A stretch of 64,000 nucleotides of DNA from Methanocaldococcus bathoardescens (GTDB lineage Archaea > AGJL01 > Methanococci > Methanococcales > Methanocaldococcaceae). Below are positions 3,437 through 57,236 of this stretch, piece after piece. Position 1 is the first letter of the stretch; each line of letters opens with the position of its first letter. The stretch covers positions 1,249,311 through 1,313,310 of the forward strand of contig NZ_CP009149.1 of NCBI RefSeq assembly GCF_000739065.1, in the 5' to 3' direction. The notes beneath the pieces were generated by a model. It did no database searches, was not told the origin of the DNA, and saw nothing but the letters and a program-made list of their open reading frames with translations. Made by a program: the position numbers and the translations under genes.

Positions 3437-3671
3437 CTAAGAGACATTGCTTCCGTAAGGAAGCAATGCATCGGGGTATCGCAATAGGGGATTCCCCTAT
3501 GCCCGCCAGAGTTATTTAGTGTGGAACGCTATAAAGAGATTACTGAATGGACATTAATTGGGGCTGAAAGCCCCAACTTAATGGACAAGTTTTGATGAAA
3601 CTTTTGCTAAAAGTTTCGTTTAAAGTCTCAAAGTTAATTTAGTATGGAATGCAATAAAGAGGATTTTATAG
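3392..3671 (+). repeat. three copies of the ATPase gene 3' tail, separated by hairpins
   Basis: Copy 1 is the true gene end (3392-3436). Copy 2 (about 3504-3556) reads [15 protein letters not shown] then stop. Copy 3 (3627-3671) reads [12 protein letters not shown] then stop. Between copies 1 and 2 lie a 10-bp stem hairpin (3445-3468) and a B-type hairpin (ATAGGGG/CCCCTAT, 3484-3500). Between copies 2 and 3 lie an A-type hairpin (3548-3586) and the hairpin GAAACTTTT-GCT-AAAAGTTTC (about 3596-3616). The copies differ by scattered substitutions, so they are not very recent. Confidence 0.85.
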
Positions 3672-3905
3672 ATTTGTTAATTTAAATTTTTTCATTTATA
3701 ATATATTAAATTAATGTTTTGTTTAAATATGATTTCATGGTTTTTGTGATAAAATATAAAGTATTAATTAAAGATTTAAATTTTATTTTTATATTTTTAA
3801 TTACTATATATCAAAATATATAAATTAATAATAACAGATAACTTTTTAACCCTCAACCATATATAATTTCCTAAACACCCAATAAAATTTTATAGAGGGA
3901 TAGAT
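3437..3905. other. 469-bp intergenic region
   Basis: The first 235 bp hold the hairpins and duplicated ATPase tails described separately. The remainder (3672-3905) is very AT-rich and non-coding. It contains TATA-like stretches near 3805-3830 and the leader of the transaldolase gene, with a GAGGGAT ribosome-binding site just before its ATG. I see no additional gene. Confidence 0.7.
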
Positions 3906-4559
3906 ATGAAATTCTTCTTAGACACAGCAAATGTTGAAGAAATTAAAAAATACGCTGAGCTTGGCTTAGTTGATGGAGTTACAACAAACCCAACATTAGT
4001 AGCTAAGGAAGGAAGAGATTTCTATGAAGTTGTTAAAGAAATTTGTGAAATTGTTGACGGTCCAGTAAGTGCTGAGGTTATATCAACAGATGCTGAAGGA
4101 ATGGTTAAAGAAGCGAGAGAATTGGCTAAAATAGCTGATAACATAGTTATAAAAATCCCAATGACAAAAGATGGAATGAAGGCAGTTAAAATATTATCAG
4201 CTGAAGGAATAAAAACAAATGTAACATTAGTTTTCTCTCCATTACAAGCTTTATTGGCTGCTAAGGCAGGAGCTACCTATGTATCACCATTCGTTGGAAG
4301 GTTAGACGATATTGGACATGTAGGAATGAAATTAATTGAAGATGTTGTAAAAATATACAAAAACTATGATATTAAGACTGAGGTTATAGTTGCTTCTGTT
4401 AGACACCCATGGCATGTTTTAGAGGCAGCTAAGATAGGAGCAGATATAGCAACAATTCCACCAGCAGTTATGGATAAGCTCTTCAACCACCCATTAACAG
4501 ACATTGGTTTAGAGAGATTCTTAAAAGATTGGGAAAATTATCTAAAAAGTAGAAAATAA
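3906..4559 (+). CDS. tal: transaldolase (short archaeal/FSA-like type)
   Basis: A 217-residue transaldolase of the short form. The family transfers dihydroxyacetone units between sugar phosphates (sedoheptulose-7-P plus glyceraldehyde-3-P to erythrose-4-P plus fructose-6-P) in the non-oxidative pentose phosphate branch. The TIM barrel begins [10 protein letters not shown], with TTNPT at 26-30. The Schiff-base lysine is K83 in [20 protein letters not shown] and [10 protein letters not shown] are also typical. It resembles MJ0960. The start has a strong GAGGGAT ribosome-binding site. The last codons (GTAGAAAATAAA) are repeated after the hairpin element immediately downstream. Confidence 0.95.
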
Positions 4560-4667
4560 AGAAAAACAGCAATCTATAATAATGGACATTAATTGGGGCT
4601 GAAAGCCCCAACTTAATGGACGTGGGGTATACCAATAGGGGCCTTGCCCCTATGGGTAGAAAATAAA
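4549..4667 (+). repeat. composite hairpin element (A+B modules) flanked by 12-bp direct repeats
   Basis: Module A is 4583-4621 (stem GGGGCT-GAA-AGCCCC with outer CATTAA/TTAATG arms). Module B is 4622-4655 (GGTATACC palindrome, then a CCAATAGGGGC/GCCCCTATGG stem). The 12-mer GTAGAAAATAAA, which is the transaldolase 3' tail with its stop codon, occurs at 4549-4560 and again directly abutting module B at 4656-4667. Related copies of A and B lie at 3474-3586, 49351-49420 and 56950-57236. Confidence 0.85.
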
Positions 4668-4711
4668 TTGACATCTTCTCTTTCAAATAAATAATTTTAT
4701 GGAGGGAGATT

Positions 4712-5869
4712 ATGAAATTGGAAGCAACTAAAAAATTGTTAATGATTCCAGGGCCTACAATGGTTCCACCAGAGGTTTTAAATGCAATGGCAATGCCAGT
4801 AATTGGGCATAGAACAAAAGATTATGGGGCTTTATTGGAAGATACAATAGAAAAATTAAAAAAAGTATTCATAACTGAAAATGATACATTCTTAATTACC
4901 GGTTCAGGAACAGCAGCAATGGATATGGCAATATCAAACATAATAAAAAGAGGAGATAAGGTTTTAAACATTGTTACAGGAAACTTTGGAGAGAGATTTG
5001 CAAATATAGTTAAAGCATACAAAGGAGAGGCAATTAGATTAGATATAGAATGGGGAGATATGGCTGATCCAGAAGCAGTTAAGGAAATATTGGATAAATA
5101 TGATGATATTAAAGCAGTTACAGTTGTGCATAATGAAACATCAACAGGTGCAAGAAACCCAATAAAAGAGATTGGAGAAGTTGTTAAGGACTATGATGCT
5201 TTATACATTGTTGATACCGTCTCATCATTAGGAGGAGATTATGTAAATGTTGATAAATTCCACATAGATATCTGTGTTACCGGTTCTCAAAAATGTTTAG
5301 CAGCCCCACCAGGATTGGCAGCTATAACAGTCAGCGAGAAAGCATGGGAAGTTATCAAAAAGAATGATGACAAAGTTGGTTTCTACTTAGATTTATTGGC
5401 TTATAAAAAATACTATGAAGAGAAAAAACAAACCCCATACACACCATCAGTTAACTTAACCTATGCAATGAATGTTGCCTTAGATTTAGTTTTAGAGGAA
5501 GGAATTGAGAATAGAGTTAAAAGACATGAAAGATTGGCTAAAGCAACAAGAGCTGGTTTAGAGGCAATGGGAATAGAGTTGTTTGCTAAAGAAAGAGCAA
5601 GGTCAGTAACAGTTACATCAGCAAAATATCCAGAAGGAATTAAAGATAGTGACTTTAGAGGAATATTAAGCAACAAATACAATATAGTTGTTGCTGGTGG
5701 GCAGAAGCACTTAGCTGGAAAGATATTCAGAATTGGACACATGGGAATCTGTGGAGAGAAAGAAATCTTGGCTACATTAGCTTGTGTGGAATTAGCTTTA
5801 AAAGAGCTTGGATTTGAAGTTAAAGAGAGTGGAGTAGAAGTAGCAAAAGAAGTCCTATTGAGAGAATAA
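4712..5869 (+). CDS. class V PLP aminotransferase (phosphoserine/aspartate aminotransferase)
   Basis: A 385-residue fold-type I PLP enzyme of aminotransferase class V. The PLP lysine is K194 in GSQKCLAAPPG, and the PLP-pyridine aspartate is D168 in VDTVSS. The MIPGPTMVPP N-terminus and GSGTAAMD motif are typical of the alanine-glyoxylate/serine-pyruvate aminotransferase group. In Methanococcales the equivalent protein (MJ0959) is a broad-specificity aminotransferase shown to make phosphoserine. I infer the same role here. The start is ATG after GGAGGGAG. It is convergent with hisC, with only five bases between the stop codons. Confidence 0.9.
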   Translation: MKLEATKKLLMIPGPTMVPPEVLNAMAMPVIGHRTKDYGALLEDTIEKLKKVFITENDTFLITGSGTAAMDMAISNIIKRGDKVLNIVTGNFGERFANIVKAYKGEAIRLDIEWGDMADPEAVKEILDKYDDIKAVTVVHNETSTGARNPIKEIGEVVKDYDALYIVDTVSSLGGDYVNVDKFHIDICVTGSQKCLAAPPGLAAITVSEKAWEVIKKNDDKVGFYLDLLAYKKYYEEKKQTPYTPSVNLTYAMNVALDLVLEEGIENRVKRHERLAKATRAGLEAMGIELFAKERARSVTVTSAKYPEGIKDSDFRGILSNKYNIVVAGGQKHLAGKIFRIGHMGICGEKEILATLACVELALKELGFEVKESGVEVAKEVLLRE

Positions 5870-5874
5870 ACCAT

Positions 5875-6984
5875 TTAGCTTATAATCTCTTCTAAAATTT
5901 TTAAAAACCTTTCAATCTCTTCAAATGTTCCTATTGATACCCTAACATAATTATCTCCTAAACCATCAAATGAAGAGCAATCTCTAACAATAACACCTCT
6001 TTTTAATAGTTCTTCACAAAATTCTTTTGCTTTCATTGTTTTTAATTCAACCAATACATAATTAGCTTCTGAAGGATAAACCTTAATATCTTTAAATTTC
6101 TTTAGTCCATTATAGAGCATTTCCCTACTTTTAATTCCATCTCTAACGCATCTTTCAAAGAATTCTCTATCTCTTAACGCAGTTATAGCACAAATTTGGC
6201 TTAACCTTGTTAAACTGAATATTGGCTTAACTCTCATCATGTAATCAATAATTTTTTTATTTGCAACACCATAACCAACTCTCATCCCTGCTAAACCAAA
6301 GACTTTTGAAAATGTCCTTAAAACAATAACATTATCATATTCAGGAGCTTTTTGAGTCCAATCATATTCTTTTTTAGCATACTCAATATATGCATGGTCT
6401 ATAACAACCAAAGCATCTGTTTCATTGATAATTTTTTCAATGTCTTTATTTTCTATTATATTTCCTGTTGGATTGTTTGGAGTGCAGAGGAAGATAACCT
6501 TCGTTTTATCTGTTATATTATTTAAGACACTTTCAACATCCAATTTAAAATCTTTTTCTTTGTCATATTTAGCATATTTTATTTTAGCGTTGTGAATTGT
6601 TGCTGAAACTCTATATTGGGTAAAAGTTGGAATTGGAATTATGACTTCATCGCCATCATCAACAAACGTTCTAAATATTGTGTCTATAATCTCATCAGCC
6701 CCATCGCCACCAACAATAATATTTTCCTCGCTAACATTTAAAAAGTTGCTCAACTCTTTCATTAAAACTGGATTTACTGGCTCTGGATATTGATGGATTT
6801 TGTCAATCTCCTCTAAGATTTTTTCTTTTATCTTTGGAGAAGGTCCCCAAGGATTTTCATTAGAACCAAGTTTTATAATATCTTCTGGTTTTATTCCATA
6901 AGCTCTTGCTATCTCTTCTTTAGATTTTCCTGGAACATAGGGTTTTAATTTTTTAACAACTTCTCTTACTTTATTTCCTATCAT
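5875..6984 (-). CDS. hisC: histidinol-phosphate aminotransferase
   Basis: A 369-residue class I/II PLP aminotransferase that converts imidazole-acetol phosphate plus glutamate to histidinol phosphate in histidine synthesis. Visible motifs are [11 protein letters not shown] (39-49), the TPNNPTG loop (168-174), the PLP aspartate in [11 protein letters not shown] (about 193-203), and the PLP lysine K227 in [18 protein letters not shown]. It resembles MJ0955. The start is ATG with a GTGAT ribosome-binding site. It stands alone rather than in a his operon, which is normal in Methanocaldococcus; hisF is also isolated at about 55.3 kb. Confidence 0.95.
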
Positions 6985-7073
6985 CTAATCACCTAAAAAT
7001 TTTAACCAAAAATATTTTAAATAAGATTCTTGGATTTTTATATATTAACCTTACAAAAGATAGAGGGGTGTAT

Positions 7074-8369
7074 ATGAAGAGGATACTTTTACTTATGCTC
7101 TTATTGGTTATAAGTGTTGGCTATGCTCTACCTACAGAGCCAGTAATCTTTGTAAATAAAAGCACAGTAGATTATCAAAATGCTAAAGTTTTAATGGACA
7201 ATCTTTATTCTTCAAGAGAAATAAATGTTAATAAGGATAATATAACGGTTATTATTAAAGATATTACGTATATTCCAGCTACAGATAAACTTGAAATTGA
7301 GGATAATGATAAAAAGCTCATTATAAAATTTGATAGAGACGGAGACAATGTAAATTATAAAGATATTGAGTGTATTGAATATTTAAACCTTGAAAAAGGA
7401 AAGGAAATAAGCTTATTCAACAAAAGCTACATAGTTGAGGATATTACTTCAAATTATATAATATTAAAGGAAAAATATGGAAAAGAAATAACAACAAATG
7501 ACTCATTTGAATATGATGGATATAAAGTTATTGTAAAGCTTGTTTCATCTGATTTAGACACCATAGTTGTTGATATCTATAAAAATGGAAAAGTTATAGA
7601 TTCTCCTAAATTAACTAAAGGATGCTTTTATTATGTGGAAGGAGGGACGTTGGGAATTGTATTTAAAAATTGCACAAGAAACGGTAGAGACTATTATTTT
7701 ACATTTGATGCATATTCCACAATAAAAATTGAAGAAGATAGGGATTTCCCATTGGATAATAGATTTAAAGTGAAAGATATCAGCGCTGATAAAATAAAGC
7801 TTGAATATAAAAATATAAATGATTTGGGAAGTGAAATAAACTTGTTTAATTGTACTATAATGCCTGAAAAGTGTTATAAAGATTGTGTTCTATTTAAAAT
7901 TATAAAAAGAGAAAATAAAACTCTAAATATCAAAGACAAAGACACTGCTTATCTTGGAGAAGGTATTTACGCTATAAAAATAAATGATACAGTTCATGTA
8001 TATTATAAAGGAAAAGAACTCAAAAATCATGAAAAGATTTATCTTAACACATTGGATATGTTTGATATCGACTCATTAAATATTAATAAAGATATAATCC
8101 TCATTGGAGGTCCAAAAATTAATAAATTTGTTAAAGAGCTTGAAGATAAGGGCTTATTGAAAGTAAATATAACTGACAATTATCCTGGAAATAACAGAGG
8201 GGTTATACAAAAAATAAAAAACCCTTACAATGATAATAATATCTACATTTTAGCGGGTTCTAACAGATGGGGAACAAAAGCGGCAATATTGGCATTTTTA
8301 ACAAAATATGATGATGAAGATGTATTAATGGTAGAATGGGATGAAGGAGATGTGAAAATTATCAAATAG
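7074..8369 (+). CDS. secreted S-layer-domain protein
   Basis: The open frame begins at GTG 7068, but the GGGGTG there is a ribosome-binding site for the ATG at 7074, giving 431 residues. A signal peptide (MKRILLLMLLLVISVGYA) is followed by beta-rich extracellular sequence. Near the C-terminus, IILIGGPKINKFVKELEDKG and IYILAGSNRWGTKAAI closely resemble the C-terminal domain of the Methanocaldococcus S-layer protein (MJ0822 family). It is shorter than the main S-layer protein, so I infer a minor S-layer or envelope protein. It resembles MJ0954 in position. The cysteines are few and scattered. Confidence 0.75.
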   Translation: MKRILLLMLLLVISVGYALPTEPVIFVNKSTVDYQNAKVLMDNLYSSREINVNKDNITVIIKDITYIPATDKLEIEDNDKKLIIKFDRDGDNVNYKDIECIEYLNLEKGKEISLFNKSYIVEDITSNYIILKEKYGKEITTNDSFEYDGYKVIVKLVSSDLDTIVVDIYKNGKVIDSPKLTKGCFYYVEGGTLGIVFKNCTRNGRDYYFTFDAYSTIKIEEDRDFPLDNRFKVKDISADKIKLEYKNINDLGSEINLFNCTIMPEKCYKDCVLFKIIKRENKTLNIKDKDTAYLGEGIYAIKINDTVHVYYKGKELKNHEKIYLNTLDMFDIDSLNINKDIILIGGPKINKFVKELEDKGLLKVNITDNYPGNNRGVIQKIKNPYNDNNIYILAGSNRWGTKAAILAFLTKYDDEDVLMVEWDEGDVKIIK

Positions 8370-8378
8370 AAAAATTAA

Positions 8379-8681
8379 TTAATCAAAGATTTTTTTAATG
8401 TATGGCTCAAATGGAACAATATCTTCTCTACTTCTTGGACTTATTGTGGCTACTTTTAATTTTCTCTCTTCTGGGATTAAATCAATAACTAAAGTTCCTG
8501 GAGTGGCTGTTATAGACCATGACAATAAAACTAAACCAGTAGGGTTATTGATAATTGATTCTATTTCTATAACTTGAGGGTTTATTTCCCCATTTATGCT
8601 TCTTTTAACTACGTCAACCCAAGATTCGCATATTGCTTTAATTAGAACAGCCAAATATCCGATAATTCCTAATAATCTCAT
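8379..8681 (-). CDS. small membrane-associated protein, MnhE/MrpE-like
   Basis: The frame opens at GTG 8690, but the GGTGTG upstream places the start at ATG 8681 ([17 protein letters not shown]), giving 100 residues. There is an N-terminal hydrophobic segment, then [15 protein letters not shown], which matches the SITLTPGT signature of MnhE/MrpE subunits of cation/proton antiporters. The same fold occurs in subunits of energy-converting hydrogenases of methanogens (for example EhbA). No other antiporter or hydrogenase genes flank it, so the host complex cannot be decided here. Ehb genes are known to be scattered in Methanococcales. Confidence 0.6.
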
Positions 8682-8754
8682 AAGCCACACACCTACAAAA
8701 ACTCTGCTACAATAAGTTTTATTAACTACCCAAGATATATATGTATTGCTGATA

Positions 8755-8848
8755 TAGGACTTTCGCAGTTTATATATTTATAATAAGGAATTTTGATGCC
8801 AAAGACATCATTATGTCAATAGAACAATTTATTCCTGCGAAAGTCCTA
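8755..8848. mobile_element. MITE-like element, family 1 copy A
   Basis: A 94-bp element with perfect 14-bp terminal inverted repeats TAGGACTTTCGCAG (8755-8768) and CTGCGAAAGTCCTA (8835-8848), flanked by TA on both sides (753-754, 849-850). The interior has TTTATATA, a TAAGG motif and a small GATG-CCAAAGA-CATC hairpin. It lies between the divergent MnhE-like gene and prefoldin, 30 bp before the prefoldin ATG. No ORF is encoded. Confidence 0.85.
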
Positions 8849-8878
8849 TAATAAATGCTTAATTGTTGAGGTGGAAAT

Positions 8879-9298
8879 ATGAGTGAAGATTTAAGACAAA
8901 AAGCGATGGCTTTAGAAATATACAACCAACAATTACAAATGATTCAAAGTGAATTAGTATCAATAAGAACATTAAAATCTGAAATAATGAATTCAATTAA
9001 AACAATTGAAAATATAAAGGCTAATGAAGAAACATTAATTCCAGTAGGCCCTGGAGTGTTTGTAAAAGGAAAAATTGTTGATGATAAGGCATTAATTGGG
9101 ATAAAGTCAGATATTTATGTTGAGAAACCATTTAGTGAGGTTATTGAAGATTTAAAAAAATCTATTGAGGATTTAGATAAAGCTGAAAAAGAAGGAATGA
9201 AAAAAGCTGAAGAATTAGCTAAGACAATAGCTGCTTTAAGAAAAGAGTTACAGGCAGGAATACAAAAAGCTCAACAAGCTCAAGAGAAGAAACAATAA
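8879..9298 (+). CDS. pfdA: prefoldin alpha subunit
   Basis: A 139-residue alpha-class prefoldin, part of the hexameric chaperone that hands unfolded proteins to the archaeal thermosome. Two long coiled-coil helices (about residues 5-48 and 85-135) flank the alpha-type beta-hairpin insert (LIPVGPGVFVKGKIVDDKALIGI, near 53-75). The C-terminus is Gln/Lys rich. It resembles MJ0952. The ATG follows GAGGTG. A MITE lies immediately upstream and may contribute the promoter. Confidence 0.92.
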   Translation: MSEDLRQKAMALEIYNQQLQMIQSELVSIRTLKSEIMNSIKTIENIKANEETLIPVGPGVFVKGKIVDDKALIGIKSDIYVEKPFSEVIEDLKKSIEDLDKAEKEGMKKAEELAKTIAALRKELQAGIQKAQQAQEKKQ

Positions 9299-9362
9299 AA
9301 AATAGAAAAATTAAAAAATTTTTATCCTTTTTTATCTTATTTTGTAATTTAGAGTGTTTAAC

Positions 9363-9474
9363 TATAGTGTCTTTCAAAATTAATAAAATTTATTAAGAAA
9401 AGTTTGAACGCCTTTCTAAAGGAAGGCGTTCATTAGTGCCTTATATATTCCAAGAAGTTTTGAAAGACACTATA
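9363..9474. mobile_element. MITE-like element, family 2 copy A
   Basis: A 112-bp element with 17-bp perfect inverted termini TATAGTGTCTTTCAAAA and its complement (9458-9474). The interior carries a GC-rich hairpin, GAACGCCTT/AAGGCGTTC, and a GCCTTA motif. It lies between prefoldin and tRNA-Val. It is non-coding. The second copy is at 43296-43406. Confidence 0.85.
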
Positions 9475-9536
9475 AAACTAAAACAGTAATTCCTATATTT
9501 AAATTAACAAATGTTTATGTCTAAAATAAAAAATAG

Positions 9537-9610
9537 TGGGCCCAGCCGGATTCGAACCGGCGACCTTCGCCTTGTAAGGGCGACGTCATAGCCAGCTAGA
9601 CCATGGGCCC
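9537..9610 (-). tRNA. tRNA-Val (UAC)
   Basis: The minus-strand cloverleaf has acceptor GGGCCCA/TGGGCCC, T-arm GCCGG-TTCGAAT-CCGGC and anticodon loop CTTACAA (anticodon UAC). The discriminator is A. CCA is not encoded; the gene is followed by CTA. A TATA-like CTTTATATA lies upstream at about 9639-9647, close to the divergent nucleotidyltransferase gene. Confidence 0.97.
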
Positions 9611-9668
9611 TCAGCATCAATAACAATCTATGTTCTCATATATAAAGTTTATGCCTATTGGTGAAATT

Positions 9669-10733
9669 ATGGATTTAAATCTAAAAAATTTTTTGAAAGA
9701 TAGAGAGGAGATAATTAGAGATGCTGAAAGAAAAGATGAAAAATCTTTTGAAGATTTTAAAAAAATAGTTGAAGAAATAAAAGAAAGAGAAAATAAAGAT
9801 AAAATCGTTTGTGATTTCACTGAATACAACCCATTACATAAAGGGCATAAATATGCATTAGAAAGAGGAAAGGAACATGGAATTTTTATTAGTGTTTTGC
9901 CTGGACCCTTAGAAAGAAGTGGGAGGGGAATTCCTTATTTCTTAAATAGATACATTAGAGCTGAGATGGCTATAAAAGCTGGAGCTGATATTGTTGTTGA
10001 AGGCCCACCTATGGGAATTATGGGTTCTGGGCAGTATATGAGATGCTTAATAAAAATGTTTTATAACTTAGGGGCTGAGGTAATACCAAGGGGCTATATT
10101 CCAGAAGAAACTATGGAAAAAGTTATAAATTGCATAAATAATGGCTATCATATTCAAGTTAAGCCATACAAAATTTGTTGTATAGAGACAGGGGAGATTT
10201 TGGGAGAAAAATTGAATATAGATAACTATGTCATTGCTTCAATGTCTCAGATGATTTATAAACTGAATAAAGAAGGTTTGAGGTTTAATCCAAAATTTGT
10301 TTTTGTTAGGAGGTTGGAAGGAATAAGTGGAACTAAAATTAGAGAAGCAATATTCAGTGGTAAATTTGAAGAAGTTAAAAATATGCTTCCAGAAACAACA
10401 TTAAATATTTTAAAAGAACTCTATGATAGCGGAAAACTCAATGAATTGATATTGAAGAGATTTGAGGATAGAATCTTAGAAACAGCTAATGAGTTTGATT
10501 TATATAAATATCTACCAAACAATGTTGCTGAAATTTTAGAAAAGAGAAGACCATTTAATAATATTGAGGAAATAAAAAACTCTCTACCTTATGGATTTTC
10601 AAGACATTTTAAGGAGAGAATTTTATCTAAATTAGAGGCAAGAATTCCAAATGAAACTTTATCAAAATATATAAATAACTATCCTGCAAAGATAAAAATA
10701 CTTGCGGTTAGAGATGATAATAGAGACGATTAA
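9669..10733 (+). CDS. HIGH-motif nucleotidyltransferase (TmcAL/YlbM-like)
   Basis: The open frame begins at 9630, but GGTGA directly precedes ATG 9669 ([14 protein letters not shown]), giving 354 residues. [17 protein letters not shown] (NPLHKGH 54-60) is the ATP-binding HIGH-type motif of nucleotidyltransferases, and [10 protein letters not shown] is the matching C-terminal substrate motif. The overall architecture fits Pfam HIGH_NTase1, whose bacterial members (TmcAL) make acetyl-cytidine at the wobble base of elongator tRNA-Met. Whether the archaeal enzyme does the same is inference. It resembles MJ0951. A MITE abuts its stop codon. Confidence 0.8.
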
Positions 10734-10734
10734 A

Positions 10735-10826
10735 TAGGACTTTCGCAGGAATAAATATTTTATTGAAAGATGATGCCTTTTAGGAATCAAACTACCTTAT
10801 TAAATATATAAACTGTGAAAGTCCTA
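10735..10826. mobile_element. MITE-like element, family 1 copy B (reverse orientation)
   Basis: A 92-bp element starting two bases after the upstream stop codon. The termini TAGGACTTTCGCAG and CTGTGAAAGTCCTA form 13 of 14 pairs. On the minus strand it aligns with copies A and C, including TTTATATATTTAATAAGG and a small hairpin. It is non-coding and separates the nucleotidyltransferase from the PIN nuclease. Confidence 0.83.
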
Positions 10827-10882
10827 TTTAAAATAAAAAATCATATCAAAAATCTCAAAGAAATTAAATTTTGGGGAGAGAT

Positions 10883-42373: not shown

Positions 42374-43300
42374 ATGGAAGGTTTAACAGTAGGATTATTT
42401 GGGCATGTTGAAGGTGTTGGAAAAGAGTTAGGGAAAAAAGGGACATCAACAGATATAACATTATACAATTACAAGCAAGGGGATAAAGCTATTTGCTATG
42501 TTGAGCCCACAAGATATCCAGATAGGATAAACCCCCTAATCTATGCAATAAACATGATGGATTACGCTTTAGTTTTTATTGATGAGATTACAGGAGAGTT
42601 AGGGGAGACACTTTTAGCATTGGATATGTTTGGAATAAATAGAGGAGCTTTTGTTGTTGGAGATTATGTTGATTTAGACATGTTGAAAAATATAATATCT
42701 CAAACATCAATGAAAGATTTTGAAATCTTAGAGAAAGATTTTATAAACATTAGAGAAAAGATGGTTAATTTAAATGTGGATAGAGATTATGATGGAGTTG
42801 TTAAAATTCCAATAGACCACTACTTTACAGTTAGGAGTGTTGGAACAGTCATATTAGGAAAAGTTGAAACTGGGACAGTAAAAGTTCATGATAACCTAAG
42901 GGCTTATCCAACAGACAAAACAGTGATGGTTAGAAGTATTCAAATCCACGATAATGATTTTAAAGAGGCGAAAGCTGGGAATAGAGTAGGTTTAGCTTTA
43001 AAAGGAATAACTACAGATGAGTTGGATAGAGGAATGATATTATCAAATGGTGAGTTAAAAGTTGCTAAGGAAATTGAGGTGGATATTAATTGGAATCCAT
43101 TCATGCAAAAAACAGTAAAAGAAGGAGAAAATTACCAAATAATTGTTGGTTTGCAAAGTGTTTCTTGCAATGTTGAAGAAGTAAATAACAACAAAATAAA
43201 GCTTTCTTTACAAAAGGAAATAGCTTATGATGTTGGAGATAAGTTATGTTTAGTTGATGGTAGTGCAAAAATTAGAATATTGGGTGTTGGAAAATTATAG
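42374..43300 (+). CDS. EF-Tu/SelB-like protein with a degenerate GTPase domain
   Basis: A 308-residue relative of translation factors EF-1A/SelB. The N-terminal domain aligns in layout, but the P-loop reads FGHVEGVGKELGKKGTS instead of GHVDHGKS/T. The NKxD base-recognition motif is absent (FVVGDYVDLDML). Domains II and III (about 140-308) are well kept, with VKIPIDHYFTVRSVGTVILGKVETGTVKVHDNL and VRSIQIHDNDFKEAKAGNRVGLALKGI. It probably cannot bind GTP in the usual way. It resembles MJ0325. Its TAG stop codon lies inside the left terminus of a MITE. Confidence 0.82.
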   Translation: MEGLTVGLFGHVEGVGKELGKKGTSTDITLYNYKQGDKAICYVEPTRYPDRINPLIYAINMMDYALVFIDEITGELGETLLALDMFGINRGAFVVGDYVDLDMLKNIISQTSMKDFEILEKDFINIREKMVNLNVDRDYDGVVKIPIDHYFTVRSVGTVILGKVETGTVKVHDNLRAYPTDKTVMVRSIQIHDNDFKEAKAGNRVGLALKGITTDELDRGMILSNGELKVAKEIEVDINWNPFMQKTVKEGENYQIIVGLQSVSCNVEEVNNNKIKLSLQKEIAYDVGDKLCLVDGSAKIRILGVGKL

Positions 43301-43406
43301 TGTTTTTCAAAATTAACAAAATTTATTAAGGAAGGTTTGAACGCCTTCCAAAGGAAGGCGTTCATCTATACCTTAGTTATTTCAAAAAGTTTTGAAAAAC
43401 ACTATA
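43296..43406. mobile_element. MITE-like element, family 2 copy B
   Basis: A 111-bp element with 17-bp perfect inverted termini TATAGTGTTTTTCAAAA and complement. The interior hairpin is GAACGCCTTCC/GGAAGGCGTTC. It overlaps the last bases of the EF-Tu-like gene: the TATAG terminus provides that gene's TAG stop. The companion copy is at 9363-9474. Confidence 0.87.
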
Positions 43407-48753: not shown

Positions 48754-48778
48754 CTTATCACCAAAATTTTATTTTTAA

Positions 48779-48867
48779 TAGGACTTTCGCAGTTTATATA
48801 TTCCATAAGGCATTTAGATGCCAAAGGTATCAGTTCCTTAAAAAATATTATTCCTGCGAAAGTCCTA
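48779..48867. mobile_element. MITE-like element, family 1 copy C
   Basis: An 89-bp element with perfect 14-bp termini TAGGACTTTCGCAG/CTGCGAAAGTCCTA. The interior has TTTATATATTCC, TAAGGCA and a GATGCC-AAA-GGTATC hairpin. Its right end is one base from the stop codon of the neighbouring gene (48869). It is non-coding. Confidence 0.86.
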
Positions 48868-48868
48868 T

Positions 48869-49321
48869 TTAATTTTCCTGATTTTCCTCTAAGCTCTTTA
48901 AGAAATTAGCTATCTTATTAACTAAAATTTCTGCCTCTTCTTCATTTGTTGGATATTTCACTCTCAATATTGGAATATTTTTTCTTCTTACTAAATAGAG
49001 TGTTAATTCATTTGTTCTCTGGCATCCAATGCATCCAAAGGCAATAGGGGCATCTTCCATTATTATTGCCGCTTCAGCCTCTTCAATTAATGGCCCAATT
49101 AATGCCATTCTTCCTCTAACACCAGAAGGAACTTCTACAGCAGCATATTTTAAACCTTTCTTTGGTTCTTCATCGGTTATGTTCATAGGAGGGCTGTCTA
49201 TTTCTGGGTTTCTAACTAATTTCCCCATAACTATATTTAGATTTAATGGCTTATGTCCAAATCTTTCAACTAAATCTGTTAATATTAAACTATTTGGAGG
49301 ATATATGAATATTTTTTTCAT
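48869..49321 (-). CDS. methanogenesis-marker 5-type protein
   Basis: A 150-residue protein with [23 protein letters not shown], then [46 protein letters not shown] (about residues 68-113). The [11 protein letters not shown] motif, with two cysteines, is the signature of a family restricted to methanogens, which I recall as putative methanogenesis marker 5. It likely binds a metal or cofactor through those cysteines; the reaction is unknown. ATG start after AAGGTGATG. Confidence 0.75.
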
Positions 49322-49330
49322 TTCATCACC

Positions 49331-49420
49331 TTAAAACTTTTATTTTGAAACCATAGGGGGAACCCCTATTGGTATACCCACGTCCATTAAGTTGCCCCTT
49401 TTAGGGGCAATTAATGTCCA
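49331..49420 (-). repeat. composite hairpin element (B+A modules) plus duplicated tail
   Basis: On the minus strand, module A (49382-49420, stem GCCCCT-AAA-AGGGGC) is followed by module B (49351-49381, ATAGGGG-TTC-CCCCTAT). TTTCAAAATAAAAG (49337-49350) comes next, resembling the 3' end of the upstream DUF2111 gene (TTTCCAAAATAAG). It is the same A-B-tail order as after transaldolase, with different stem bases. A related hairpin, CCATAA/TTATGG, lies at about 49452-49473. Confidence 0.78.
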
Positions 49421-49501
49421 GCTCTTTTTAAATATTAGGACGTATTTGCAACCATAAGAGCAAACCGTTATGGTACGGGATTTTTATAGTTTTATATTTA
49501 C

Positions 49502-49888: not shown

Positions 49889-50048
49889 TTTCCCACCTAA
49901 AAATCTTTAAGTAATAGTTTAATAATTTTAACTTTAAAGTTACTCTATATAAACAATTTTTGCTAATCTACTATAAAGGATTATTGTTCTAATACTAACG
50001 TTCAATTTATCCAATCATTAAGTTATTCTTAAAAATTAGGTGGTAAAA

Positions 50049-50951
50049 ATGGAAAAAATTACCTGTGTAGGACATACGGCTCTTGATTATATTTTCAATG
50101 TAGAAAAATTTCCAGAACCAAATACCTCAATTCAAATTCCTTCAGCAAGAAAATATTATGGTGGAGCAGCGGCAAATACAGCAGTAGGAATAAAAAAACT
50201 TGGTGTAGATTCTGAACTTTTATCATGTGTTGGTTATGATTTTAAAAACAGTGGATATGAAAGATATTTAAAGAATTTAGGAATAAATATTTCTAAACTT
50301 TACTATTCTGAAGAAGAAGAGACACCAAAAGCATGGATATTTACAGATAAAGATAATAACCAAATTACTTTCTTCTTATGGGGAGCGGCTAAGCACTATA
50401 AGGAGTTAAATCCACCAAACTTCAATACAGAAATTGTCCATATAGCAACAGGAGACCCAGAGTTTAACTTAAAATGTGCAAAAAAAGCTTATGGAAATAA
50501 TTTGGTATCTTTCGACCCTGGGCAAGATTTACCACAATATTCAAAAGAAAATTTATTAGAGATTATTGAACATACAAACTTTTTGTTTATGAATAGGCAT
50601 GAATTTGAAAGGGCTTCAAAGTTATTGAATTTTGAAATTAATGATTATTTGGAGAGGGTTGATGTCCTTATAGTAACAAAAGGTTCTAAAGGTAGCACAA
50701 TATATACCAAAGATAAAAAAATAGAGATTCCATGTATTAAAGCGGAAGAAGTTATAGACCCAACAGGAGCTGGAGACAGCTACAGAGCAGGATTTTTATC
50801 TGCTTATGTTAAAGGATATGATTTGGAGAAATGTGGTTTAATTGGGGCTGCAACCGCTTCATTTGTTGTTGAGGCAAAGGGATGTCAAACGAATTTACCA
50901 ACATGGGATAAAGTTGTTGAGAGATTAGAAAAACATGGATTCAAAATATAA
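50049..50951 (+). CDS. PfkB/ribokinase-family nucleoside kinase
   Basis: The start is ATG 50049 (MEKITCVGHTALDYIF) after AGGTGG, giving 300 residues. It is a PfkB-family sugar/nucleoside kinase with YYGGAAANTAVGIKKLG (substrate side) and DPTGAGDSYRAGF (about 237-249, anion hole and catalytic Asp). The orthologue MJ0406 was shown to phosphorylate several nucleosides (such as inosine, guanosine, cytidine) with broad specificity. I infer nucleoside salvage here. Confidence 0.92.
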   Translation: MEKITCVGHTALDYIFNVEKFPEPNTSIQIPSARKYYGGAAANTAVGIKKLGVDSELLSCVGYDFKNSGYERYLKNLGINISKLYYSEEEETPKAWIFTDKDNNQITFFLWGAAKHYKELNPPNFNTEIVHIATGDPEFNLKCAKKAYGNNLVSFDPGQDLPQYSKENLLEIIEHTNFLFMNRHEFERASKLLNFEINDYLERVDVLIVTKGSKGSTIYTKDKKIEIPCIKAEEVIDPTGAGDSYRAGFLSAYVKGYDLEKCGLIGAATASFVVEAKGCQTNLPTWDKVVERLEKHGFKI

Positions 50952-51003
50952 AATCCAAAACTAAATATAAAACTCTTTCAATAATAAAATTATGAGGGAT
51001 ATT

Positions 51004-51924
51004 ATGGATATAGTAGAAAGAATAAACAAATTAAAAGAAGAAAAAAATGCAATAATCTTAGCTCATAACTACCAACTAAAGGAAATACAGAAAATAGCTG
51101 ATTTCCGTGGAGATTCATTAGAACTCTGTATTAAAGCAAAGGAAACAGATGCAGATATAATTGTATTTTGTGGAGTAGATTTTATGGGAGAGTCTGCTAA
51201 AATTTTAAATCCAGATAAGAAAGTTTTAATGCCAGAAATTGAAGGAACTCAATGTCCAATGGCTCATCAATTATCTGCAGAGATTATAAAAAAATATAGA
51301 GAAAAATATCCAGAAGCCCCATTAGTTGTTTATGTGAATACAACAGCAGAGACAAAGGCATTGGCAGATATAACTTGCACATCAGCAAATGCAGATAAAG
51401 TTGTTAATTCCTTAGAGGCAGATACAATTTTATTCGGTCCAGATAACAATTTGGCTTATTATGTGCAGAAAAGGACTGATAAAAAAATAATACCTATCCC
51501 AGAAGGAGGAGGCTGTTATGTGCATAAAAAATTCACCATGGAAGATTTAAAGAGAGCTAAAGAGAAATATCCAAATGCTAAAGTTTTAATTCATCCAGAA
51601 TGTAGCCCAGAATTGCAAGATAACGCTGATTATATAGCAAGTACAAGTGGAATAATAAGAATAGTGTTAAATTCTGACCATGAAGAGTTTATAATTGGTA
51701 CTGAAGTAGGGATTATAGATAGAATAGAATTAGAGCTTGAAAAAATAGGTAAAAAGAAAACTCTCATTCCATTAAGAGAAGATGCTATTTGCCATGAGAT
51801 GAAAAGAATAACCTTAGAGAAGATAGAAAGATGTTTATTAGAAGAAAAGTATGAGGTTAAATTAGATAAAGATATTATTGAAAAAGCCAGAAATGCCATT
51901 GAAAGAATGTTAGAAATTAAATAG
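51004..51924 (+). CDS. nadA: quinolinate synthase
   Basis: The start is ATG 51004 (MDIVERINKLKEE), with GAGGGAT upstream serving as the ribosome-binding site although an ATG at 50992 is in frame. The product has 306 residues. NadA condenses iminoaspartate and dihydroxyacetone phosphate to quinolinate for NAD synthesis. Three cluster cysteines are visible: C84 (GTQCPMAH), HPECSPEL and DAICHEMKR. AHNYQ (20-24) and GDSLELC are conserved. It resembles MJ0407. mptD follows 8 bp later. Confidence 0.95.
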   Translation: MDIVERINKLKEEKNAIILAHNYQLKEIQKIADFRGDSLELCIKAKETDADIIVFCGVDFMGESAKILNPDKKVLMPEIEGTQCPMAHQLSAEIIKKYREKYPEAPLVVYVNTTAETKALADITCTSANADKVVNSLEADTILFGPDNNLAYYVQKRTDKKIIPIPEGGGCYVHKKFTMEDLKRAKEKYPNAKVLIHPECSPELQDNADYIASTSGIIRIVLNSDHEEFIIGTEVGIIDRIELELEKIGKKKTLIPLREDAICHEMKRITLEKIERCLLEEKYEVKLDKDIIEKARNAIERMLEIK

Positions 51925-51932
51925 GGAATAAC

Positions 51933-52298
51933 ATGAGAGTAGAAGAAACTGAAATCTTTAAAAAATATTTTAAAAACCTAACAGACAGAGAGAGGGCAGT
52001 GTTTGAAGGGGGAATTACCTTAGGAGCTTTATTTCATCAATTTGTTGGCACTCCGGTAAGTAAAGATAATAAAGAATCATTAGAGAGAGCTATAGAAGAG
52101 GCTATGAAAAATCAGCCATGTGTTTATGATATAAAAGTAAGAATTAAGGATGTTGGGGAAAAGTATGTTTCTCTTGATGGAAAGATGTTAGATGTTGATT
52201 TAAAAATTAAAGTAAATAGAACTATTGCCCATTTAAAACTTGAATATATTCCAGAAATTGACTACCCTCTTATGTATGTGAAAAAGTTCGAAGAATAA
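51933..52298 (+). CDS. mptD: archaeal dihydroneopterin aldolase MptD
   Basis: A 121-residue protein of the COG2098/DUF381 family. In methanogens it makes 6-hydroxymethyl-7,8-dihydropterin from dihydroneopterin in tetrahydromethanopterin synthesis. Conserved features are RERAVFEGGITLGALFHQFVGTPV and the C-terminal LEYIPEIDYPLMYVKK. The orthologue MJ0408 has been assigned this function. It starts 8 bp after nadA and is likely cotranscribed. Confidence 0.9.
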   Translation: MRVEETEIFKKYFKNLTDRERAVFEGGITLGALFHQFVGTPVSKDNKESLERAIEEAMKNQPCVYDIKVRIKDVGEKYVSLDGKMLDVDLKIKVNRTIAHLKLEYIPEIDYPLMYVKKFEE

Positions 52299-52368
52299 AT
52301 AATTTATTTTACTAATTACAGACTTTTGAAACTATGATTAAATATATAACATTGTTTAGGTGAATGGG

Positions 52369-54474
52369 ATGAAAAAGTTTGTTTTTATATTTTTGATATT
52401 TACCATGTTCAGTTATGTTTATTCTTCAAACATTGAATATAAATATACGAGTTCAATTCCAATAGAATTTGTTCCATTATCAAAAGTTGAAAATGTTGAG
52501 AAGCTTAATGAATTTTTAGATAAAAATAACTCTCTAACTGTGTTCTGTTTTGATAATGATTCAATTGATGAGAATATTTTATATTATTTAGGAATAAAGA
52601 AATACTTGCCATCGAAAATTCCTGATTATGGGAATTATACATACGTAAATAAAAACGGAGTTATTGTTGTATATCCAAAATACAGTGTTTATAGAGAAGA
52701 TGGGGCTTTAATATTCAACCCGCCAAAAGAAGAGAATTACAGTGAGTATGAGTTTGTAAAGCCATATAAAATTAAAGTTCCAAATACTTCAAAAGTCCCA
52801 AATTATGATGGATACGTATTGATAGAAAACGCTACATTTATCCTTTATCCAAAAAAATACATCATTAGAGGAGATGAAGGGGAAATTTATTATATCCCGC
52901 CAAAAGAAAGTTCTGATGAATATTATTGTAAATACTCTTACAATCTTCCAGTAAAATACATCCCTGACTATTATGATTATGTATTTGTTGATAATAATGG
53001 TATTTTCATAATCTATCCAAAAAAATATGTTACAAGAAATGATGAAGGAGTTTTAATATTCAACCCACCCGTAGAAGTAAGAGAAGTTCCAATTTATAAG
53101 ATTAATTATAGAAAAGTAGCAGACGGTGTTTATGAAATTAAAGAAAATAAACTACTCTTCATGTATCCAACATCTTTGAATGATAAAGAAACTCTTGACA
53201 TTATTGGAGAGTATATAGCTAAAAATGGTGGAGTTTTTGCATATATAAATAAAGTTCCGCCATATTATAAGCATATACTCGTTTCAGGAGTTGCTGTAAA
53301 TAAAATAATCCCAGATGAGAATGGAGATTATGCTATAGACGTTGCAGGAAGAAAAATTAAAGTGGATATGTTGGATGATGAGATAATCAACAAAAAATTA
53401 AAATACATAAAGGCTTTGAAGGCTTTAGATATAAATGTAAGTTACATAGTAACTGGTAGTGAGGGTATTGATATTGTTGAAAAATCTGATGTTGATGTAG
53501 ATGAACTTAAGGATTTATACAATTATTATTGGTTTAAAAAATGGTGGCAAAATTACACCCATCTTTACTTTAATCCATCAAAATTAGAAAGCATTGAATC
53601 AGAAGATATATTGGCTTTAAGCTATTATCCTCTAATTTATGTTGATAAAGCACCAGAAACATTTAGAAATGACCCTATTGGCGGTTATTATCCTCAAGTT
53701 ATAAGTTATAAAGGAACAGAAGATTATGGTTATTGGGAAGAAGGGGCTAAGAGTGAAAACATTTATTATCACTTAGATTATGGAGAACCTTATTGGGATG
53801 GAAAAGCTAAAGAGCCATCAAAATGGTATTATGAAGGAGAACCAGTTTCAATGAAAGATGACAGCGAAATGTGGGATAAATATAAGTATTTCAACCGATG
53901 GTTTGTGAAAAATTATGCCTATGCATTGGCACGAGGATGTGATGGGTTATTCTTGGAGAGTTCAGATAAAAACTTGGTAGATGCAATTTTTGGAAATGAT
54001 AATGAAGATTTAGATTGGAAATTGGATTTAGACGGTAAAGTGGATTATGTAGTAATTCCTGGACATAAAGGGTTTGAAATTTATAATGGAATTCCAATTA
54101 TCAGAATTCCAACACCACTCAAAGAAATTTATGGAGTAAATGTTGTTAATACTCTCTATATTCCACCAAAAGATGAGGACTTTGGAATTTATATTGCAGA
54201 TATTAGGGATTATGATAGAAAGTTAATTATTAAACTAAAAGAAAATGGAACTGAAGTAGTTTCATTTAAAGATTTGGCCAAATGGCTTAATAAATACACT
54301 AAAAATAATATCTTCTACAATGGAACTGCTATAAGGATAAATGACAATAATGGAATAAAAATCACCTTATTTAAAAAGAACTTTGATATGAGCAATTATA
54401 CTTTTGAAGAGTTTGATAAAGAACACTGCAAATATGTAATAGTAAATCCACCAAAAATAATCCCTTTAAACTAA
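52369..54474 (+). CDS. large secreted protein with three internal repeats, function unknown
   Basis: The start is ATG 52369 ([20 protein letters not shown], a signal peptide) after GGTGA, giving 701 residues. Between about residues 85 and 245 three repeats of roughly 65-75 residues are visible, each with Y(T/V)(Y/L/F)(V/I)(N/E/D)N...(I/F)(V/I)(V/L/I)YPK(Y/K)Y.....(D/E)G....(N/I)PP. The C-terminal half has [38 protein letters not shown] and [24 protein letters not shown], suggesting an alpha/beta domain, possibly deacetylase- or glycosidase-like. I do not recognise a named family. Confidence 0.75.
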
Positions 54475-54498
54475 ATCTATAATATTTTGGTGATAATA

Positions 54499-55296
54499 AT
54501 GAAAATAGGATTTTATAATATTCAAGGGGGGACTGGAAAAACAACAATTGCTGCAAATTTTGCTTACATACTTAGTCATTCAGCTAAAACTATATTGATT
54601 GATTGTGATATATATGGAGGAACTACTGCTTTGCTATTTGGTCTTGAAGATAAAGAACACAACCTAAATACATACCTTTCAGGAGACTCTGCAATTGAAG
54701 ATATAATATATCAATACGATGACTTGGCAATTATACATACTGATGTTTCCTCAAGAGTTTTTGGATACAAAGTTGATTTATACAGATTTGAGGATTTAAT
54801 CAAAACGTTGGAGGAAGAGTATGATGTTATAGTTTATGATTTCCCACCAAACATTACTGAAGATAATCCATTGGTTGGATATGTTGGTGAGTTTGAATTG
54901 GTTAATAAAGTTGTTATAGTTGGAGAAGATAGTATTCCATCAATTGTGAACTCACTAAAATCTATGGAGCTTATAAGAGATTTAGGTATAGGGCTTACGG
55001 GGATAATTATAAATAAATATAAGGGGCTTACGGATATTAGTGAGATAATAGACGATGTTATTGGAATTCTACCTTATGACCAAAATGTAGAGAGGCAGTG
55101 GGTAGAGAGTACACCAATAGTAAAAATTAAAACAAAATTCACAAAGGAAATGACTAAATTAACCAATGAGCTTGCAAGTGTATATTTAGAGAAAGATTTG
55201 GCATCATTAAGAGCCTTGAAATTAGCAAAAGCTATATCAGAGCTAACTGAAGAAGAAAAATTAGAAAAAGAATTAGAATTCAAAGATTTAGAATAA
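54499..55296 (+). CDS. ParA/MinD-like ATPase
   Basis: The start is ATG 54499 (MKIGFYNIQGGTGKTTIAAN) after GGTGAT, giving 265 residues. It is a deviant Walker A ATPase (GGTGKTT, residues 10-16, with the Q preceding in place of the usual signature lysine of KGGxGK). TILIDCDIYGGTTALLFG and VIVYDFPPNITEDNP carry switch I and II. The C-terminal helical tail is charged (ELTEEEKLEKELEFKDLE). Whether it segregates DNA or positions proteins is unknown. It lies just after the large secreted protein and 15 bp before hisF. Confidence 0.85.
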   Translation: MKIGFYNIQGGTGKTTIAANFAYILSHSAKTILIDCDIYGGTTALLFGLEDKEHNLNTYLSGDSAIEDIIYQYDDLAIIHTDVSSRVFGYKVDLYRFEDLIKTLEEEYDVIVYDFPPNITEDNPLVGYVGEFELVNKVVIVGEDSIPSIVNSLKSMELIRDLGIGLTGIIINKYKGLTDISEIIDDVIGILPYDQNVERQWVESTPIVKIKTKFTKEMTKLTNELASVYLEKDLASLRALKLAKAISELTEEEKLEKELEFKDLE

Positions 55297-55311
55297 AATG
55301 AAGTGATAGGG

Positions 55312-56130
55312 ATGTTAACAAAGAGGATAATTCCATGTTTGGATATTAAAGATGGGAGAGTAGTTAAAGGGACAAAATTTTTAAATCTGAGAGATGCTGG
55401 AGACCCCGTTGAGTTAGCCCAGTACTATGATAATGAAGGAGCTGATGAACTTGTATTTTTGGATATAACTGCTTCAGCTGAAAAGAGAGATATAATTATT
55501 GATGTTGTGGAAAGAACAGCTGAAAAAGTTTTTATTCCATTAACTGTTGGTGGTGGAATTAAATCAATTGAAGATTTTAGAAAGATATTGAGGGCTGGAG
55601 CTGATAAAGTTTCAATAAATACTGCAGCAGTAAAAAATCCTAATTTAATTAAAGAAGCAAGTGAAATATTTGGCTCTCAATGTGTTGTTGTTGCTATTGA
55701 TGCTAAGAGGCATTATGTTAATGAGGATGAGATAGATAAGATAGATAAGAATGTTGTTAAGGTAGAGGATGGTTATTGCTGGTTTGAAGTTTATATATAT
55801 GGAGGAAAGAAAGAAACTGGTATAGATGCAATAGAATGGGCTAAGAAAGCTGAAGAATTGGGAGCTGGAGAGATTTTATTGACAAGTATAGATAAAGATG
55901 GGACAAAAAGTGGCTATGATTTAGTATTAACAAAAGAGATTTCTAAAAGTGTTAAACTCCCTGTTATTGCGAGTGGAGGTTGTGGAAAACCAGAACATGT
56001 TTATGAAGCATTCACTATAGGAAAAGCAGATGCCGCATTAATGGCAGGGATATTGCATTATAGAGAATATACAATAGAGGAAATAAAGAAATACTGTGCT
56101 GATAGAGGAATACCTATGAGATTGTTATAA
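55312..56130 (+). CDS. hisF: imidazole glycerol phosphate synthase, cyclase subunit HisF
   Basis: The start is ATG 55312 ([20 protein letters not shown]) after AGTGATAGGG, giving 272 residues. This TIM-barrel cyclase uses ammonia from HisH to make imidazole glycerol phosphate and AICAR. Catalytic D11 (CLDIKDG) and the second aspartate in VVVAIDAKR are present, as are phosphate loops TVGGGIKS and [11 protein letters not shown]. It resembles MJ0411. HisH is not adjacent. Convergent with the ABC ATPase. Confidence 0.96.
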
Positions 56131-56157
56131 ATCCCATTATTTTATCTTTAATTTTTA

Positions 56158-56925
56158 TTATTTTAGAGATTTTAAGACTTCATCCTTCAATATATTTAAT
56201 ATTTTTTTTCTATATTCAAGAAATTCTATACTTGTTCTATCTCTTGGCCTTTCCAAATCAATTTCAACAATCTCTTTTATCCTCCCAGGTCTTGCGGTTA
56301 ATACAACAACTCTATCTGAAAGATAAACTGCCTCATCAACGCTATGGGTGACGAAAAACACCGTCTTTTTCTCCTTTTGCCATATTTTCAATAGCTCATT
56401 CTGTAAGATGTTTCTTGTTTGGGCATCTAATGCTGCAAACGGCTCATCCATTAAAACAATCTCTGGGTCGTTGGCTAAAGTTCTCGCTATCGCAACTCTT
56501 TGCTGCATCCCTCCACTTAATTGATAAGGATAAGCATCTTCAAACCCTTCTAATCCAACCATTTTAATGAATTTTTTAGCAATCTCTATTCTTTCTTTTT
56601 TTGGAATACCTTTTAACTCTAAACCAAATGTAACGTTTTTTAAAACAGTTCTCCAAGGCATTAATGTATATTGCTGAAATACAACTCCTCTATCAGCTCC
56701 TGGTCCCTTAACTTCTTTTCCATCCAACAAAACTTTTCCTTTAGTTGGATAATCTAAACCGGCTATAATCCTTAGTAATGTTGTTTTTCCACAACCACTC
56801 GGACCCATAACTGTTAAAAATTCATTCTCATAAACCTCTAAATTAATATTATCTAATGCTTTAACTCTATTTCCATTAAATTCAAAAATTTTTGTTAGAT
56901 TTTCAACTTTCAGCTTCACTTTCAT
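56158..56925 (-). CDS. ABC transporter ATPase, SsuB/TauB type
   Basis: A 255-residue importer ATPase. Walker A GPSGCGKT (41-48), Q-loop [11 protein letters not shown], signature [15 protein letters not shown] and Walker [14 protein letters not shown] are complete. The H-loop is [13 protein letters not shown]. The sequence is most like the nitrate/sulfonate/taurine group. It resembles MJ0412. The permease gene lies 347 bp upstream on the same strand, with a hairpin/MITE composite in between. No substrate-binding protein gene is visible. Confidence 0.9.
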
Positions 56926-56949
56926 CCTATCCCTTTTTTATTTCTTAGA

Positions 56950-57236
56950 CCATAGGAGGAAACCTCCTATTGGTATGAACCTTTTAGTAAAAGCTTCACC
57001 AAAATATAACACCTCCTCGCTTCGCTCGGAGGTGTAACTTAGAGTTTTTTGGGTATACCAATAGGGCGAAGCCCTATGGTTGCGGATACCACACGTCCAT
57101 TAACCAATTATCAAAGATTTTAAATTAAATAAGGCACTTATAGAAGCCCAAAGGGCTTCTAAATATTCCTTAGTAAATAATATCTTCCTTTGATAATTGG
57201 TTATAAGTTGCCTCTTTCAGAGGCAATTAATGTCCA
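56950..57236 (-). repeat. composite hairpin element, largest copy, interrupted by a MITE
   Basis: Read on the minus strand: module A (stem GCCTCT/AGAGGC, split by the MITE at 57102-57202), a reversed B hairpin (ATAGGGC-GAA-GCCCTAT), a CCTCCGAGC/GCGAGGAGG hairpin, a loop resembling AAGCTTTTACTAAAAGG, and a final B hairpin (ATAGGAGG-TTT-CCTCCTAT) ending CCTATGG. The stems differ from the other copies but pairing is kept. Confidence 0.75.
57102..57202. mobile_element. MITE-like element, family 3 (nested)
   Basis: A 101-bp element with perfect 15-bp inverted termini AACCAATTATCAAAG and CTTTGATAATTGGTT. The core is AATAAGGCACTTAT, a hairpin AGAAGCCC-AAA-GGGCTTCT and ATTCCTTAG. It splits module A of the surrounding hairpin element between CGTCCATTA and TAAGTTGCC, so it is younger than that element. 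It has no ORF. Confidence 0.82.

What the first reader, a model, noticed from the sequence alone, without database searches (positions are those of the whole stretch)
3474..57236. Composite hairpin elements with covarying stems at four loci
Two modules recur: A (TGGACATTAATT-stem-AACTTAATGGAC) and B (GGTATACCAATA-stem-TATGG). Read in one orientation, the A stems are GGGGCT/AGCCCC (3548, 4583), GCCCCT/AGGGGC (49382) and GCCTCT/AGAGGC (57202 side). The B stems are ATAGGGG/CCCCTAT (three loci), ATAGGGC/GCCCTAT and ATAGGAGG/CCTCCTAT. Flanking arms and loops are conserved while stem bases change in compensating pairs. That is the signature of a structure kept as RNA or cruciform DNA, or of a mobile unit that tolerates only paired changes. 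The modules sit downstream of genes and carry no ORF. I know of no named family matching them.
Basis: seen in the sequence. Interest (0 to 1): 0.82.

Follow-up and report, generated by a model that had tools for sequence, protein, structure and literature searches.

The report
Mobile hairpin repeats that duplicate gene ends
The hairpins belong to a family of short mobile DNA repeats, found only in Methanocaldococcus and close kin, that insert mostly at gene ends, copy 20-60 letters of the target on both sides, and keep their hairpin stems matched at the level of DNA rather than RNA; the family itself was probably described in M. jannaschii in 2005.

Summary
Modules A and B are at the stated places and their stems change in matched pairs. 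This 1.6-Mb genome holds 22 A and about 60 B copies; relatives occur in most genomes of the genus and in no other genus searched, bar one chance-like match. Over 42 distinct A and 89 distinct B sequences, 140 cells carry matched double changes against 15 G.T and 13 A.C. That lack of strand bias points to a palindrome kept as DNA, not a one-strand RNA. The modules are ends of short mosaic mobile elements. Of 196 B right ends, 58 have a flanking direct repeat (2 expected), in 39 starting exactly after CTATGG. Empty sites in 12 other genomes confirm one insertion. The repeats are long and variable (22-62 bp in young copies) and usually span a gene end. The right end sits at TTNNNRAA (A at +7, p=6e-18); the A left end shows no such motif. 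No reverse transcriptase is found in the genus, no Y1 transposase in this genome. The family is very probably MJRE of M. jannaschii (Suyama 2005), whose sequences I could not read. The insertion signature appears undescribed; its enzyme is unknown.

The parts
3393..3436 (+). 3' end of an ATPase-like gene (ORF 2357-3436), first of three copies (peptide [12 protein letters not shown])
   Evidence: (D7)
3440..3472 (+). D-type left hairpin AGAGACATTGC..GCAATGCATC, left part of element 1
   Evidence: sequence; same module in many copies
3473..3502 (+). module B, right end of element 1 (ends CTATGC)
   Evidence: match 3473-3505
3507..3545 (+). second copy of the gene 3' end; differs from the first mostly at synonymous sites
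   Evidence: L003
3549..3586 (+). module A, left part of element 2
3587..3618 (+). module C hairpin (GATGAAACTTTTGCTAAAAGTTTC), right part of element 2
   Evidence: module C right ends
3619..3671 (+). third copy of the gene 3' end
   Evidence: (D7)
4549..4560 (+). left copy of a 12-bp flanking repeat GTAGAAAATAAA (end of a transaldolase-like gene, ORF 3906-4559)
   Evidence: sequence; ORF
4584..4621 (+). module A of element 3
4624..4655 (+). module B of element 3, ends CTATGG
4656..4667 (+). right copy of the 12-bp flanking repeat, directly after CTATGG
   Evidence: sequence
49351..49380 (-). module B of element 4 (reads ..CTATGG on the - strand)
49382..49419 (-). module A of element 4, stem GCCCCT/AGGGGC
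56950..56981 (-). module B, right end of composite element 5 (stem ATAGGAGG/CCTCCTAT)
57005..57038 (-). module E hairpin (TTACACCTCCGAGCG..GAGGAGGTGTTA)
   Evidence: sequence
57050..57079 (+). inverted module B inside element 5
57095..57103 (-). right arm (foot) of module A of element 5, cut off by the insert
   Evidence: sequence
57104..57200 (.). 97-bp insert with inverted repeats CCAATTATCAAAG..CTTTGATAATTGG inside module A
   Evidence: sequence; same insert at the same place in other copies
57200..57235 (-). left arm and hairpin of module A of element 5, stem GCCTCT/AGAGGC

Best explanation
A and B are end modules of a family of short (about 70-300 bp), ORF-less mobile elements of Methanocaldococcus, built as mosaics of hairpins. 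The right end is B (..CTATGG) or C; the left end is A, D, E, F or an inverted B (CCATAG..). Shown here: copies are flanked by direct repeats of the target, empty sites exist in relatives, and the right end joins target DNA at a TTNNNRAA-like site while the A left end shows no such motif. Inferred: a host or unidentified enzyme recognises the right-end hairpin, joins it to one strand at the motif, and the left end is joined to the other strand at an unfixed distance, so gap filling gives a duplication of variable length. Such a long duplication restores an intact gene when the element lands across a gene boundary, so these insertions survive. Also inferred: the stems stay matched because the hairpin is used as DNA, by selection for a foldable end or by copying of one arm from the other. 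Recombination between copies then swaps modules at fixed sites.
For: Flanking repeats at 58 of 196 B right ends, 2 expected, 39 starting at offset 0 after CTATGG; earlier own-genome test 17 of 55 at p<0.02, about 1 expected. Empty single-copy site in 12 other genomes for the L092:305 element; at the L018 site G012 and G004 carry A-B, G001 carries D-B at the same point, and G008, G000 and others are empty. Motif after CTATGG over 135 distinct flanks: T1 55%, T2 60%, A7 72% (p=6e-18), A8 57%; similar motif after C ends (17 flanks), not outside A ends (88 flanks). Full-length copy at G000 205.7 kb has CCATAG/CTATGG ends and a 35-bp repeat on both sides. Young repeats range 22-62 bp. Matched double changes 140 v G.T 15 v A.C 13. 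Different module content at the same site in different species.
Against: No enzyme is identified. About 70% of B ends have no detectable flanking repeat; age could erase it, and inverted B ends inside elements are counted too. Long variable duplications do not fit any transposase class I know. Differences between the two repeat copies are mostly at third codon positions (44/30/132 for positions 1/2/3), more than decay of a non-coding copy predicts, so later recombination or another process is needed.
Confidence: 0.74

Rival explanations
1. The hairpins are a conserved RNA element in 3' untranslated regions (terminator, stability or processing signal) kept by selection on the transcript.
For: Strong covariation and frequent position just after stop codons.
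Against: G.T and A.C intermediates are equally rare (15 v 13); RNA selection tolerates G.U. 14 of 54 copies lie at gene starts. Orthologous sites are empty in most species. No Rfam family matches.
Confidence: 0.1
2. No dedicated enzyme: copies arise by replication template switching at hairpins, which both duplicates flanks and repairs one stem arm from the other.
For: Explains variable duplications, mosaics and matched stem changes together.
Against: No microhomology between CTATGG and the native bases before the duplication (matches 7-27% per position). A fixed target motif at +7/+8 implies recognition.
Confidence: 0.12
3. A REP-like or IS200/IS605-type element moved by a Y1 transposase that recognises bulged hairpins.
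For: A and B are imperfect hairpins with a one-base bulge and conserved feet.
Against: Y1_Tnp is absent from G000, G008 and ten others; present only in G001 and broken in G012. Those systems make no target duplication (established knowledge).
Confidence: 0.04
4. Fragments of a known insertion sequence or of CRISPR arrays.
For: About a dozen B ends abut degenerate CRISPR repeats.
Against: The modules are not CRISPR repeats, and most copies lie at ordinary genes. No longer relative with an ORF was seen at any fetched locus, though this was not searched systematically.
Confidence: 0.1

Closest known systems
MJRE1-3, palindromic repetitive elements of M. jannaschii (Suyama, Lathe and Bork 2005)
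   Same: Same genus; palindromic, about 100 bp, multi-copy, mostly intergenic (from memory). G008, whose contig length equals the M. jannaschii chromosome as I remember it, carries 28 A and 59 B matches.
   Different: I could not read the paper, so sequence identity is unproven. As far as I remember it does not report flanking duplications, a target motif, pair-type analysis or other species.
MITEs (non-autonomous derivatives of DNA transposons)
   Same: Short, no ORF, palindromic, inverted ends in full-length copies, target duplications, gene-flank positions.
   Different: Duplications are long and variable (22-62 bp), not a fixed 2-14 bp; motif seen at the right ends and not at the A left end; no parent transposon found.
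REP/BIME palindromes with RAYT (TnpA_REP)
   Same: Bulged hairpins in mosaic arrangements between genes.
   Different: No Y1 transposase in this genome; target duplications present.
Target-primed retroposons (LINE/SINE type)
   Same: Motif at one end only and duplications of variable length.
   Different: No RVT_1 reverse transcriptase in any of 14 genomes of the genus.

Membership tests
MJRE (M. jannaschii palindromic repeats) | Published consensus sequences match A/B | not testable with these tools
   Paper not held; only its citation is seen.
MJRE (M. jannaschii palindromic repeats) | Palindromic, multi-copy in the M. jannaschii genome | tested here: met
   28 A and 59 B matches in G008, inferred to be M. 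jannaschii from contig length 1,664,970.
MITE | Terminal inverted repeats | tested here: inconclusive
   CCATAG..CTATGG only in full-length copies (G000 205695, 281122; L092:305; L106:1960); most copies end left in A, D, E or F.
MITE | Target-site duplication | tested here: met
   58 of 196 at p<0.01 and empty sites in 12 genomes.
MITE | Duplication of fixed short length set by a parent transposase | tested here: not met
   22-62 bp in copies with at least 93% identity.
REP/RAYT or IS200/IS605 | Y1 (HUH) transposase in the genome | tested here: not met
   PF01797 absent from G000; 2 of 14 genomes positive; controls ring.
Retroposon by target-primed reverse transcription | Reverse transcriptase in the genome | tested here: not met
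   PF00078 absent in 14 of 14; controls ring.
Structured RNA family in Rfam | Match above gathering score | tested here: not met
   Only tRNA and 5S in the window.
Structured RNA kept by selection on one strand | Wobble G.U intermediates exceed A.C | tested here: not met
   15 G.T v 13 A.C over 131 distinct sequences.
CRISPR repeat | Regularly spaced identical repeats with unique spacers | tested here: not met
   Copies are scattered over the genome in both orientations.

The most novel reading that the evidence does not exclude
An archaeal DNA mobility mechanism without reverse transcriptase or Y1 transposase, in which one hairpin end is joined at a short target motif and the other end is joined at an unfixed distance, giving long variable duplications that rebuild genes at their boundaries; stems are renewed as DNA palindromes, and copies pass between species at the same sites together with recoded gene ends.
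Probability: 0.3. Interest if true: 0.78.

Novelty: new variant of a known kind. Interest (0 to 1): 0.56.

Why it matters
It shows that strong stem covariation can come from mobile DNA palindromes and should not be read as RNA structure without checking wobble pairs and strand. The long, variable, gene-restoring target duplications and the motif found on one side only are an unusual insertion signature, and may explain how a compact genome tolerates insertions inside gene ends. The doubled gene ends will also mislead annotation of gene termini.

Tried and rejected
(1) One-strand RNA element: rejected on pair types. (2) Y1/REP and reverse-transcriptase mechanisms: the enzymes were not found where needed. 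(3) I first read the doubled gene ends as brought in with the element from another species; in G008 at the L083 site the upstream copy looked like the G012/G004 version by eye, but alignment gave about equal distance to all species, and element-bearing species showed no general acceleration of gene ends at two loci. (4) Microhomology-driven joining: no match of native flank to CTATGG. (5) Literature: three searches for MJRE-type terms found only citations; one general repeat search, two on archaeal MITEs or insertion sequences and one on termination found nothing closer. A first version of the end-search script failed on an index error and was corrected.

Full report
The window lies in a complete 1,607,556-bp genome of a Methanocaldococcus species. 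The genus is shown by named relatives carrying the same modules. Contig lengths suggest M. bathoardescens for G000 and M. jannaschii for G008, but that rests on my memory of lengths.

Observation. All A and B modules quoted are present. A pattern search with the arms fixed and the stem free gave 11 A copies in the genome, 0 with the reversed pattern. Covariance models built from 9 A and 10 B sequences gave 22 A matches and about 60 B matches in the genome. Other genomes of the genus carry 0-28 A matches and, in seven tested, 0-59 B matches. Eight genomes of other genera of the order have no A. A scan of 84,980 species with a B pattern returned 61 loci: 60 from Methanocaldococcus, Methanocaldococcaceae or Methanococci records and one lone match in Sphingobacterium that I take as chance. 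No Rfam family other than tRNA and 5S matches in the window.

Covariation. On structure-fitted alignments of 42 distinct A and 89 distinct B sequences, 97.9% and 99.2% of cells are paired, and cells changed on both sides are 75 and 66 against shuffled means of 17.4 and 19.3, none of 500 shuffles reaching them. Copies share descent, so these cells are not independent events. The informative result is the kind of intermediate: over both modules 140 double Watson-Crick changes (74 in A, 66 in B), 15 G.T and 13 A.C (one search counts 75 for A because it includes a double change to U.G). An RNA read from one strand should tolerate G.U and not A.C. Equality means neither strand is favoured, as expected for DNA palindromes, whether kept by selection on a DNA hairpin or cruciform or by copying of one arm from the other. 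I cannot separate those two.

Anatomy. Lined up, the copies are mosaics: left hairpins A, D (AGAGGCATTGC..GCAATGCATC, sharing the A-type foot), E (TTACACCTCC..GGAGGTGTTAG), F (GTGGGGCTGAACG..GAAGCCCCGC) or an inverted B, and right hairpins B or C (GATGAAACTTTT..AAAAGTTTC). Full-length copies run from CCATAG to CTATGG, for example G000 205,695-205,816 with a 35-bp repeat abutting both ends.

Mobility. Some of these are CRISPR repeats rather than target duplications; they were left out of the codon and length work. Comparison of orthologous sites shows the insertion directly: at L092:305 one genome has the element and both repeat copies, and twelve others have one copy and no element. At the L018 site two genomes carry A-B with a nearly identical 40-49-bp repeat, a third carries D-B at the same point, and at least eight are empty. 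In young copies the repeat is 22-62 bp.

Target. After removing near-duplicates and element-internal ends, 135 flanks show T at +1 (55%) and +2 (60%), A at +7 (72%, p=6e-18) and +8 (57%). Module C right ends show a similar pattern (17 flanks); A left ends (88 flanks) show weaker AT-rich preferences and no such motif. The native bases before the duplication do not resemble CTATGG. So the right end is placed by recognition, the left end apparently is not.

Gene ends. Of 63 distinct repeat pairs, 40 cover a gene 3' end and 14 a gene start. The window shows this at 3393-3671, where the last 12-13 codons of an ATPase-like gene occur three times around two elements. A long duplication that spans the boundary leaves the gene whole, so selection on survivors may be enough to explain the position. 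The two copies differ mainly at third codon positions (44, 30, 132), more than expected if one copy simply decays; 46% at third positions is my rough expectation, 64% was seen. Gene conversion, import of alleles by recombination, or refreshment of the downstream copy when the element crosses between species could do this; tests at two loci did not decide.

Mechanism. Shown: insertion, duplication, motif, absence of strand bias in stem changes. Inferred: enzyme recognition of the right-end hairpin, separate joining of the two ends, swapping of modules. Not found: Y1 transposase in this genome and reverse transcriptase in the genus. Other transposases were not surveyed.

Novelty. The family is very likely the MJRE family of M. 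jannaschii (Suyama et al. 2005). That paper could not be opened; its citation is confirmed. What I did not find described, in a library that lacks most subscription journals, is the insertion signature and the pair-type evidence. Hence 'new variant of a known kind'.

Noticed in passing
window 57104-57200; also G000 131567, 1086043, 1433503 and L105, L106, L025, L032, L036: A roughly 97-bp MITE-like insert (CCAATTATCAAAG..CTTTGATAATTGG) sits at exactly the same place inside module A in many copies and several species, as if it and A now travel as one unit.
   Followed up: partly
window 10712-10838 and 48767-48890; L107 about 4560-4770: A second MITE-like family with inverted repeats around AATAGGACTTTCGCAG; a related one is nested inside a module B in L107.
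   Followed up: no
L171:5370-5640, L163, L165, L182, L189, L153, L198, L156, L169, L031; G000 160319 and 320158: In several genomes elements of the family sit inside or at the far end of CRISPR arrays, flush against a degenerate last repeat; in L171 the unit is present twice in tandem with repeat and spacer. A cas2-like ORF lies nearby in L171.
   Followed up: partly
63 repeat pairs across loci: The non-coding copy of the duplicated gene end differs from the coding copy mostly at synonymous sites; the cause is open.
   Followed up: partly
L014, L087, L074: Some copies sit at tRNA-like genes, and the flanking repeat holds part of the tRNA sequence.
   Followed up: no
G000 745360 site (L053, L088, L210, L211, L215, L216): One gene end is an insertion hot spot: about seven species carry different elements there and several are empty.
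   Followed up: partly
window 43296-43406: A 54-bp imperfect inverted repeat (74% complementary) with a 3-nt gap, not part of this family.
   Followed up: no
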